From: Pseudomonadota bacterium
Lineage (GTDB): Bacteria > Desulfobacterota > Desulfobulbia > Desulfobulbales > Desulfocapsaceae
NCBI GenBank assembly: GCA_018820855.1
Contig: JAHJNL010000060.1
Location: 1-64,000 of the forward strand
Length of the DNA stretch: 64,000 nt
Reading direction: 5' to 3'
Part shown: positions 4,611 through 27,501 of the stretch, one piece after another
Position numbering within the stretch: the first letter of the stretch is position 1
Layout: every line of letters starts with the position of its first letter
The notes under the pieces: generated by a model
Told to the model about the DNA's origin: nothing
Database searches by the model: none
The model's input: only the letters and a program-made list of their open reading frames with translations
Program-made: the position numbers and the translations under genes

Positions 4611-5402
4611 CTAAGCTCGCGGCGTTAGATCAACCAAGACCCTTACAAATCCTGCAGATTGGAGAAAGTGAATGATTTCAACTCGCACAGGTGGGGTCGC
4701 CAATCGTTCCATATCCTTGCCACTGACTTCCAGAATAACATTCTTTCCTCTCGGACGTACCCTGCAACCGATAAAATCACGACTCAAAAGAAAACTTTCA
4801 CATTTTTCTACCAGACGCAGTCCCTCTGCATTGACAACTGTTCCCTGAGCAAAGCGCGTGGCAAGACAGGAATTGGAATGTTTGTCATGATTGAGCAGCC
4901 GAAACTGACGGGCCAAAATGCGAATATCTTCTTTATTAAGACCGGCGTCAAGAAGCGGGGTCTTCACAGACAGTTCATGAATTGCCCGCAGACCAGGCCG
5001 GCTGTCTTTCAAATCATCAACATTGGTCCCGTCAAGAAGTGCTGAACAACCCGCCTTCTCCATTTCGAGAAGAAAAGATTTATACATCCTTTTCTTGCAG
5101 AAATAACAACGATCCGCAGTATTAGCGATAAACTCTGGCCAGATAAGAGGGTGAAGCGCTAATTCAATCCTCTCCTCAGCAGTAACACCCATGGCAGCCA
5201 ACACATTTTCGGCACTGTTTCGTTCCACCTGAGAAACAAGTTCCGACACTCCCCGCAGGGCAAAGACATTTTCTTTTCCGAGAACATCACGGGCCGCATA
5301 CAGCAGAAGAGTGGAATCCACGCCTCCGGAAAAGGCAACGGCCACACGCTTATAGCTCTTCAGCGCATCACTGAGAGCCTTATATTTTTTTTGCTCGTCC
5401 AG
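4611..5402 (-). CDS. larE: LarE-like ATP-dependent sacrificial sulfur transferase
   Basis: The protein has the PP-loop ATP-binding motif SGGVDS (residues 25-30 from the CTG start), an ADRCYFCKKRMY motif (Cys99, Cys102) and NSCLATRF with Cys179. Cys179 lies where LarE proteins carry the cysteine that donates its sulfur. LarE adenylates and thiolates the pyridinium carboxylate used to make the nickel-pincer cofactor of lactate racemase; PP-loop relatives do other sulfur transfers. No larA, larB or larC is in the window. An annotator would pick GTG at 5345 (244 residues), but the frame upstream reads EQKKYKALSDALKSYKRVAV, the usual LarE N-terminal helix. The only start-like codon that keeps it is CTG at 5402, five bases after AGGAGG. 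That ribosome site lies inside the end of the upstream HcyBio gene, which suggests translational coupling. Confidence 0.85.
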   Translation of the reverse strand: MDEQKKYKALSDALKSYKRVAVAFSGGVDSTLLLYAARDVLGKENVFALRGVSELVSQVERNSAENVLAAMGVTAEERIELALHPLIWPEFIANTADRCYFCKKRMYKSFLLEMEKAGCSALLDGTNVDDLKDSRPGLRAIHELSVKTPLLDAGLNKEDIRILARQFRLLNHDKHSNSCLATRFAQGTVVNAEGLRLVEKCESFLLSRDFIGCRVRPRGKNVILEVSGKDMERLATPPVRVEIIHFLQSAGFVRVLVDLTPRA

Positions 5403-5404
5403 TC

Positions 5405-6589
5405 CTACCTCCTGCCCTCGTCAGCATCAGGAAGAAGCTGAGCAGGAGGATTGAGAAAGAACTTGCCATCCTTCATCCAGGCCTTAAGCGTTTCAGCAAT
5501 TTCCCGGGCCATGGGAAGGCTGGACAACGGAGCAGTGATTACATTCTTGCCGTTTACCTCAATGGCACCGGATTTCAGCTGGGCATAGCTTACTTCACCG
5601 TACGTTCTGGCAATACCGTTTGAATAATCAAACCCGTAATCGATAACCTGAGTAAACAGTTCCGCATCAGAGACGCCGGTATAGGCAGCCATTTTACTGT
5701 TAAGAATAGGAATAGGGACTCCCATTCCCACAGCCAGGCTATTGCCATATCCGAGGATTGAAACACCGCGAATCCACCGCGATGACATCTGTTTCAAATC
5801 ACCCTGGACCATAAGAGTTCCGGCCGGCCGCACCGGTGTGCCATTTTCAGCCCGGGTCGCATTAGGATTGTGCTGTGTCCCATGCCAGGTCACATAGCCG
5901 ATGCCTCCTCCCAGGAATATCCGGGTCCCGACACCTATCGTCTGATAATGGGGATCATTAAAAAGAGGACTCAACTCACCGGCACTGCAGTAATTGGCGT
6001 TGCGGCAGTGTGGTTTGAGGGTTCCCATATAGGTGTGGACAGCTTTGTCCGACAAATTAACCGCACAGTTATAATTCTGGTATCCGTTTCTCGGATTACA
6101 GAGCAGGGCATAAGGAAGATCTGCCAGGGTGAGTTCCTTTCTCATCTTGGTTGCCCGGTAGCAGTCAGTCCCATAGGCCTTGGCCTCAAAGAGAAGTCTT
6201 TTCCCAGCCAGCAGATCCTCAATGACATGACCTCCGCCATAACGAAACTCACCCGGATAAACCTTGTTCAAAGGATCGTCCTCTGAAGGCTCAGTGGCTC
6301 CAATGTAGGCATCCACAGCTGCCAGTCCTGCATAAGCGGGAACCTTATTAATCCACACCTTGGAGGCCTTAATAGTGGGAGTCATCTGACCAAAATTGAG
6401 AAACGCGCCGGAAGAACACATGGTCGAAAAAGTACCAGTCGTTACCACGTCCACTTCCCTGGCTGCACCCTCAGCTCCTTTTGCTCTGACGATGCCAACC
6501 ATTTCTTCGGCCGTGACTATAACTGCTTCACCTGCCTTGATCCTGGCATTAATTTCCTCATAACTTTTCTGTACCGGTTTATCGCTCAT
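5405..6589 (-). CDS. Homocysteine biosynthesis protein (HcyBio/DUF39)
   Basis: The 394-residue protein matches the HcyBio (DUF39) family through most of its length, including GTFSTMCSSGAFLNFG with Cys58, GGGHVIEDL, CNPRNGYQNYNCA and the Gly-rich RIFLGGGIGYVTWHGTQH. In methanogens and sulfate reducers, members make homocysteine from aspartate semialdehyde and a reduced sulfur source, by-passing O-acyl-homoserine. This copy lacks the C-terminal CBS pair found in some relatives, and the usual NIL-ferredoxin partner is not adjacent. The downstream gene is LarE-like, two bases away and with its ribosome site inside this gene. The start ATG at 6589 has only a weak purine-rich ribosome site after a long A/G-rich leader. 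Confidence 0.9.
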   Translation of the reverse strand: MSDKPVQKSYEEINARIKAGEAVIVTAEEMVGIVRAKGAEGAAREVDVVTTGTFSTMCSSGAFLNFGQMTPTIKASKVWINKVPAYAGLAAVDAYIGATEPSEDDPLNKVYPGEFRYGGGHVIEDLLAGKRLLFEAKAYGTDCYRATKMRKELTLADLPYALLCNPRNGYQNYNCAVNLSDKAVHTYMGTLKPHCRNANYCSAGELSPLFNDPHYQTIGVGTRIFLGGGIGYVTWHGTQHNPNATRAENGTPVRPAGTLMVQGDLKQMSSRWIRGVSILGYGNSLAVGMGVPIPILNSKMAAYTGVSDAELFTQVIDYGFDYSNGIARTYGEVSYAQLKSGAIEVNGKNVITAPLSSLPMAREIAETLKAWMKDGKFFLNPPAQLLPDADEGRR

Positions 6590-27393: not shown

Positions 27394-27474
27394 GGTTACC
27401 ATAACAGATAAAGCCAAACCTGCTGGAAGGCAGGGACGGAACGCCACGGATCTTACCAAGATAGCCGGGTTGCC
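27394..27474 (+). ncRNA. Cyclic di-GMP-I (GEMM-I) riboswitch aptamer
   Basis: The class I GEMM pattern is complete. P1 5' strand GGTTACC (27394-27400) is followed by GCCAAACC (27413-27420) and the P2 hairpin CCTGCT-GGAA-GGCAGG with a GNRA tetraloop. GGGACGGAACGCCACGG (27433-27449), the P3 hairpin ATCTT-ACC-AAGAT, the tetraloop-receptor strand AGCCGGG and the P1 3' strand GGTTGCC (27468-27474) complete it. The base that by eye aligns with the ligand-selecting G20 of the Vibrio Vc2 RNA is G27413, which favours c-di-GMP over cGAMP; this alignment is my own. The next gene encodes an exported protein. See the overlapping terminator for the switching mechanism. Confidence 0.95.
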
Positions 27475-27501
27475 TGAGCAAAAGGTAACCCGGCTTTTTT
27501 T
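27463..27501 (+). terminator. Riboswitch expression platform: intrinsic terminator
   Basis: AGCCGGGTTGCC (27463-27474) pairs with GGTAACCCGGCT (27484-27495) and is followed by a T-run to 27501. The 5' arm is also the receptor strand plus the P1 3' strand of the aptamer, so aptamer folding and terminator folding exclude each other. Ligand binding should stabilise P1 and prevent termination, making an ON switch. The free GGTAACC could then pair with 27394-27400, which is exactly complementary. Confidence 0.9.

What the first reader, a model, noticed from the sequence alone, without database searches (positions are those of the whole stretch)
4611..6589. HcyBio (DUF39) gene coupled to a LarE-like sulfur transferase
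HcyBio makes homocysteine with an as yet unclear sulfur donor and is often found with a NIL-ferredoxin partner. Here the partner position is taken by a PP-loop protein with the sacrificial-cysteine motif NSCLATR. The LarE-like gene sits two bases away with its ribosome site inside the HcyBio gene. No lactate racemase genes are visible, so this protein may serve sulfur delivery rather than nickel-pincer synthesis.
Basis: partly seen in the sequence, partly recalled or inferred. Interest (0 to 1): 0.5.

Follow-up and report, generated by a model that had tools for sequence, protein, structure and literature searches.

The report
Nickel-cofactor gene beside homocysteine gene
In this sulfate-reducer-type bacterium the gene for an unusual homocysteine-making enzyme shares an operon with a sulfur-inserting enzyme for a nickel cofactor; the pairing recurs in many relatives and nobody knows why, because most of them lack the only enzyme known to use that cofactor.

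Summary
Confirmed: HcyBio (5405-6589, -) is followed after two bases by a LarE-type gene (4611-5402, -) with a CTG start and its ribosome site inside HcyBio. The linkage recurs: 40 of 47 HcyBio-bearing genomes of the relatives sample, and 27 of 109 (33 with nearby genes) of a phylum-wide sample.

The interpretation needs correcting. (1) The LarE is not sacrificial: it has the CXXC...C motif of [4Fe-4S] LarE, with Ser at the sacrificial position. (2) The genome carries larB and larC elsewhere but no larA, so synthesis of the nickel-pincer nucleotide (NPN) looks complete. (3) NIL-ferredoxin is not replaced; it lies on another contig. (4) In seven relatives with LarA the HcyBio-linked LarE is the only LarE, so it should make NPN. 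(5) HcyBio occurs without LarE (20 of 146; 4 of 39), and LarE survives loss of HcyBio.

Best reading: an NPN sulfurtransferase in a sulfur-assimilation operon, not HcyBio's dedicated sulfur donor. Still open: larB-CBS-HcyBio-larE operons and the usual absence of LarA leave the user of NPN unknown; the homocysteine pathway is a testable candidate, although some HcyBio genomes lack all lar genes.

The parts
5405..6589 (-). HcyBio (DUF39/COG1900) gene, homologue of L-aspartate semialdehyde sulfurtransferase; Cys58 and Cys143 conserved
   Evidence: PF01837 507 bits; conservation in A3; AlphaFold2 model mean pLDDT 83
4611..5402 (-). LarE-type PP-loop sulfurtransferase gene, CTG start, 263 aa
   Evidence: TIGR00268 241.7 bits; model mean pLDDT 96; start codon comparison
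5408..5413 (-). AGGAGG Shine-Dalgarno-like site of larE, inside the last two codons of HcyBio
   Evidence: sequence
5097..5108 (-). CXXC (Cys99, Cys102) of LarE, presumed [4Fe-4S] ligands
   Evidence: invariant in 35 of 35; ligand role from PMC9283937
4866..4868 (-). Cys179 of NSCLATR, third presumed cluster ligand; Ser178 before it aligns with the sacrificial Cys176 of L. plantarum LarE
   Evidence: alignment to 5udq; counts

Best explanation
A two-gene sulfur-incorporation operon. Gene 1 (HcyBio) makes homocysteine from aspartate semialdehyde with a sulfur held on a conserved cysteine and electrons from the NIL-ferredoxin encoded elsewhere (family knowledge, not shown here). Gene 2 is a [4Fe-4S]-type LarE that adenylates the LarB product P2CMN with ATP and inserts sulfur carried by its cluster to give P2TMN, which LarC converts to the nickel-pincer nucleotide (NPN). 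LarE is thus the NPN enzyme of this genome, translated from the HcyBio message because both steps draw on sulfide or persulfide and are usefully made together; it is not an obligatory sulfur donor of HcyBio. Where LarA exists it serves LarA; here LarA is absent, so NPN goes to an unidentified protein. Shown: the gene structure, motifs, larB and larC in the genome, recurrence, dissociability. Inferred: the reaction, the co-regulation, the sulfur source.
For: larB on C21 and larC on C7, no larA. CXXC-C and the P2CMN-phosphate residues T182, R214, R216 kept (T/S 35 of 35, R 35 of 35, R/K 35 of 35 in A2; their role from PMC9283937). Seven genomes (G020, G024, G026, G029, G030, G032, G033) have LarA, and their only LarE over the cut-off is the HcyBio-linked one; all seven have larB, six have larC. 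34 of 47 HcyBio+ relatives have larB, larC, larE and no larA. In G031, G021 and G046 HcyBio has no neighbouring LarE, but a LarE that groups with lar-type LarE lies elsewhere. LarE stays in place after loss of HcyBio and NIL in G038, which also has larB and larC. HcyBio without LarE: 20 of 146 phylum genomes including single-contig ones and 4 of 39 Desulfobacterales-type genomes. No HcyBio column separates LarE+ (93) from LarE- (15) rows. In family f19 the cluster holds an Rrf2 regulator, a PALP enzyme (CysK-like), HcyBio, NIL-Fd, an MnmA-like protein and LarE.
Against: G040, G047 and G049 have the linked LarE and larC but no larB; G039 lacks larC and shows only a larB fragment; G028 has LarE without larB, larC or HcyBio; G037 has larB and larC without LarE. 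The own-order LarE forms lack the C-terminal stretch of the lar-type LarE rows in the alignment, so specificity could differ. Co-regulation is inferred; no regulator site was sought, and no Rfam element lies at the operon. That the LarA of the seven genomes are active NPN enzymes is assumed.
Confidence: 0.6

Rival explanations
1. One reading: LarE passes cluster-bound sulfur to HcyBio (directly or through its catalytic cysteine), alone or besides making NPN.
For: Tight translational coupling (gap between -10 and +25 bases in 21 of 37 loci examined); adjacency in 12 of 15 own-order family codes and 13 further families; all 47 HcyBio+ relatives have a LarE; [4Fe-4S] LarE can carry an extra sulfur (PMC9283937).
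Against: HcyBio persists without LarE in 20 of 146 phylum genomes and 4 of 39 others; LarE persists without HcyBio (G038, G028, G045); P2CMN residues retained; in D. vulgaris Miyazaki F the genes found necessary were DUF39, NIL/Fd and COG2122, and LarE does not occur in the text (PMC5764234, passages). 47 of 47 is weak, since LarE is also in most HcyBio- genomes of the phylum sample.
Confidence: 0.15
2. The homocysteine pathway itself uses NPN: HcyBio or a partner is the unidentified non-LarA NPN protein, which is why larB, larE and sometimes larC lie beside it.
For: larB - CBS protein - HcyBio - larE on one strand in L289 and L331; larB upstream of HcyBio-larE in six loci of five families; larC 4.2-4.7 kb upstream of HcyBio-NIL-larE in three f19 loci; larB beside NIL-Fd in 26 genomes of the own family; 34 of 47 HcyBio+ relatives have larBCE without larA; controls S. 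elongatus and M. jannaschii are HcyBio+, larC+, LarA-. PMC11796402 (passages): about 15% of genomes, many cyanobacteria among them, have larB, larE and larC without larA, and an unknown NPN protein is expected.
Against: G057 and Desulfobotulus alkaliphilus (G092) have HcyBio but no larB, larC or larE over cut-off; HcyBio of LarE- genomes shows the same conserved residues; the HcyBio model has no PDB fold match, to LarA or anything else (best E 0.04, TM about 0.1); larB upstream of HcyBio-larE takes only 2 changes on the HcyBio tree, so it may be a single gain; the larB-NIL neighbourhood is confined to one family (26 of 31 f1, 0 of 14 others).
Confidence: 0.13
3. No functional link: larE happens to be inherited in a serviceable transcription unit downstream of a housekeeping gene.
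For: In the own order a good part is vertical inheritance; the surroundings (pheA-like and HU-like genes, by eye) are conserved in G031, where larE is gone.
Against: The linked state changes at least 8 times on both the LarE and the HcyBio tree (at least 4 forced by supported branches on the latter), and larE turns up behind NIL-Fd or among other sulfur-assimilation genes in other families.
Confidence: 0.12

Closest known systems
[4Fe-4S]-dependent LarE of Thermotoga maritima (PMC9283937)
   Same: SGGXDS P-loop, CXXC-C motif, P2CMN-phosphate residues
   Different: operon partner is HcyBio, not lar genes; shorter C-terminus than lar-type relatives; activity untested
LarE of Lactobacillus plantarum (5udq)
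   Same: same family, 106 bits by phmmer
   Different: its sacrificial Cys176 is Ser178 here; the single-Cys mechanism does not apply
L-aspartate semialdehyde sulfurtransferase MA1821/MA1822 and the D. vulgaris DUF39 pathway (PMC5764234, PMC12068725)
   Same: HcyBio family, NIL-ferredoxin in the genome, conserved cysteines
   Different: no CBS domain on HcyBio; partner gene is larE; NIL-Fd unlinked in this genome
larBCE-without-larA genomes (PMC11796402)
   Same: NPN synthesis genes without LarA
   Different: here larE, and in other families larB or larC, lie with homocysteine genes

Membership tests
LarE (TIGR00268) | score over curated cut-off | tested here: met
   241.7 against 150 bits
LarE (TIGR00268) | PP-loop SGGXDS | tested here: met
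   S25 G26 G27 D29 S30 invariant
[4Fe-4S] LarE | CXXC plus distant Cys | tested here: met
   C99, C102, C179 in 35 of 35 and 32 of 32
sacrificial LarE (L. plantarum type) | Cys at position 176 | tested here: not met
   Ser178 aligned with Cys176
LarE (NPN synthesis) | P2CMN-phosphate residues Ser180, Arg212, Arg214 | tested here: met
   T182, R214, R216
LarE (NPN synthesis) | larB and larC in the genome | tested here: met
LarE (NPN synthesis) | P2CMN sulfurtransferase activity | not testable with these tools
   needs an enzyme assay
HcyBio / L-ASST | PF01837 over cut-off | tested here: met
   507 against 26.2 bits
HcyBio / L-ASST | two conserved cysteines (Cys54, Cys131 of MA1821; PMC12068725) | tested here: inconclusive
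   C58 and C143 conserved; MA1821 itself was not aligned, the correspondence is inferred
HcyBio / L-ASST | NIL-ferredoxin in the genome | tested here: met
   C21:109550, 171 aa
HcyBio / L-ASST | COG2122 partner | not tested
   no genome search left
Methanogenesis marker 16 (CoM synthase) | TIGR03287 over cut-off | tested here: not met
   112.4 against 363.95 bits
lactate racemase system | larA in the genome | tested here: not met
   PF09861 no match in G000

The most novel reading that the evidence does not exclude
The nickel-pincer nucleotide has a second job: in larBCE+ larA- bacteria it serves the HcyBio/NIL-ferredoxin homocysteine pathway (as a hydride-transfer or allosteric cofactor that some lineages have dispensed with), and HcyBio or a partner is the long-sought non-LarA NPN protein.
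Probability: 0.13. Interest if true: 0.88.

Novelty: new variant of a known kind. Interest (0 to 1): 0.5.

Why it matters
Many bacteria make NPN without having LarA, and the protein that uses it is unknown (PMC11796402). A recurrent physical link between NPN genes and the homocysteine pathway, across 12 own-order and 13 other family codes, gives a concrete neighbourhood to test. My searches found no paper describing this link (only the held open-access library).

Tried and rejected
Sacrificial-cysteine mechanism: rejected by alignment. Replacement of NIL-Fd by LarE: rejected, NIL-Fd is in the genome; in the phylum sample NIL-Fd directly behind HcyBio (31 of 109) and LarE directly behind it (27 of 109) never coincide, which is positional only. 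HcyBio residues that track LarE: none. LarA-like fold for HcyBio: no match. Riboswitch at the operon: none. Co-occurrence as evidence: in the phylum sample LarE is over the cut-off in 185 of 217; about 121 of 146 HcyBio+ and, by subtraction, about 64 of 71 HcyBio- have it, so presence alone says nothing (read from the table by E-value, with five f53 genomes at 1e-29 to 1e-31 left aside as ambiguous). Weak PF09861 rows (E above about 1e-6, profile 143-196) were taken as background, not LarA. The D. vulgaris Hildenborough fitness paper PMC10102598 does not mention methionine, LarE or DUF39. Rows set aside: G013 and G025 (contig breaks) in the 47; L101, L161, L176 (contig ends) in the 80 named loci; L109 is linked through a LarE fragment.

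Full report
What is there. On the minus strand HcyBio runs from 6589 to 5405 (394 aa) and the LarE frame from 5402 to 4611 (263 aa). HcyBio's TAG and the LarE start are separated by two bases, and AGGAGG lies in HcyBio's last two codons. The start is CTG; in seven loci of the genus, window included, the same codon is CTG, in others GTG or TTG, and in further families also ATG. HcyBio: PF01837 507 bits, below cut-off for the CoM synthase family. LarE: TIGR00268 241.7 bits; closest solved relatives are L. plantarum LarE (5udq, 106 bits) and 8cnz (67 bits). The best named relatives of HcyBio are Desulfocapsa and Desulfobulbaceae contigs, 79-85% identical.

The rest of the genome. larC lies on C7, larB on C21 (297.6 bits against 175), NIL-ferredoxin on C21, about 2.1 kb from larB and divergent. 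No larA. So larB, larC and larE are all present, larA is not.

Kind of LarE. Cys99, Cys102 and Cys179 are invariant in 35 of 35 aligned LarE (27 HcyBio-linked, 8 not) and 32 of 32 of a second set. By alignment to 5udq, Ser178 stands at the sacrificial Cys176. PMC9283937 (passages) reports that CXXC-C LarE binds a [4Fe-4S] cluster, keeps its cysteines and works catalytically, with a one-residue shift of the third Cys, as seen here; it also names Ser180, Arg212 and Arg214 as substrate-phosphate residues, here T182, R214 and R216. PMC13329287 (passages) describes the same three-cysteine class.

Recurrence. Relatives sample: 56 genomes, HcyBio in 47; LarE directly downstream on the same strand in 40, two more at contig breaks, five truly elsewhere (G021, G031, G046, G052, G055). 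Named loci: of 80, 38 linked, 3 cut by the contig end, 39 not (one search printed 33, and L110, L133, L172, L174 overlap in its own output, L109); the unlinked are mainly Desulfobacterales. Phylum sample: 217 genomes, HcyBio in 146; of 109 examined (100 with up to about 6.5 kb flanks, 9 with 1.5 kb), LarE is directly downstream in 27 and nearby downstream in 6 more. Adjacency is found in 12 of 15 own-order family codes and 13 others. On trees the linked state changes at least 8 times (LarE; HcyBio), so it is either an old arrangement lost repeatedly or gained more than once.

Other lar genes in the neighbourhood. larB lies upstream of HcyBio-larE on the same strand in L289, L291, L307, L309, L331 and L342; in L289 and L331 a CBS-domain protein sits between (the L289 one checked by Pfam), recalling the CBS domain fused to the methanogen enzyme (PMC12068725, passages). 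In family f19 the order is larC ... Rrf2 regulator, PALP enzyme, HcyBio, NIL-Fd, MnmA-like, larE, another PP-loop protein ('CysK' and 'MnmA' are my naming of PF00291 and PF03054 hits). L377 has Rrf2, HcyBio, NIL-Fd, a CysK-like and a CysE-like ORF (by eye), a MOSC protein and larE. These look like sulfur-assimilation clusters. In Desulfobacterales-type genomes larE, larB and larC form one cluster away from HcyBio in six of the 25 fetched larE loci (L181, L182, L186, L193, L195, L199) and larE-larB in a seventh (L185); the flanks were only 1.5 kb, so this is a lower bound.

Does HcyBio need LarE, or LarE need HcyBio? HcyBio without LarE: 20 of 146 in the phylum sample (among them single-contig genomes G118, G153, G180, G181, G204), and G057, G084, G089, G092 of 39. 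G057 and G092 (Desulfobotulus alkaliphilus) also lack larB and larC over cut-off. LarE without HcyBio: G028, G038, G045. HcyBio conservation is the same with and without LarE. Therefore neither depends strictly on the other.

Does the linked LarE make NPN? Eleven of 56 relatives have LarA. In seven of them (G020, G024, G026, G029, G030, G032, G033) the only LarE over the cut-off is the HcyBio-linked one. If those LarA are NPN enzymes, that LarE supplies them. Against this, G040, G047 and G049 lack larB, G039 and G029 lack larC, and G028 has neither.

What remains. In 34 of 47 HcyBio+ relatives the set larB, larC, larE occurs without larA. PMC11796402 (passages) states that such genomes should contain an unknown NPN protein. 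The neighbourhood makes the homocysteine pathway a candidate, but the larBCE-less HcyBio genomes, the unchanged HcyBio residues and the lack of any fold match speak against a general requirement. Literature searched; no paper on a HcyBio-LarE link appeared. Papers were seen as passages only.

Noticed in passing
L081 4741-5541 (-) and 7476-7988 (+) (own genome, contig C21): larB and NIL-ferredoxin are divergent neighbours 0.25-3.4 kb apart in 26 of 31 genomes of the own family that have both, and in none of 14 genomes of other families.
   Followed up: partly
window 5400-5402 and genus loci L007, L011, L012, L026, L059, L097: larE appears to start at CTG in seven loci of the genus, an unusual recurrent near-cognate start.
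   Followed up: partly
L337 10338-11339, L341 3110-4111: A PP-loop protein (in L337 with ThiI-like and NFACT-R_2 domains) directly follows larE in family f19.
   Followed up: no
L093 5244-5876 (G038): A CBS-domain protein stands directly before larE where HcyBio is missing, as if HcyBio had been lost from a CBS-HcyBio-larE unit.
   Followed up: partly
window 27404-27478 (+): c-di-GMP-I-GGC riboswitch (60.5 bits, gathering 59).
   Followed up: no
G010:C141:4314-5386: HcyBio is split by a TGA and a frame change in one relative; sequencing error or decay was not decided.
   Followed up: no
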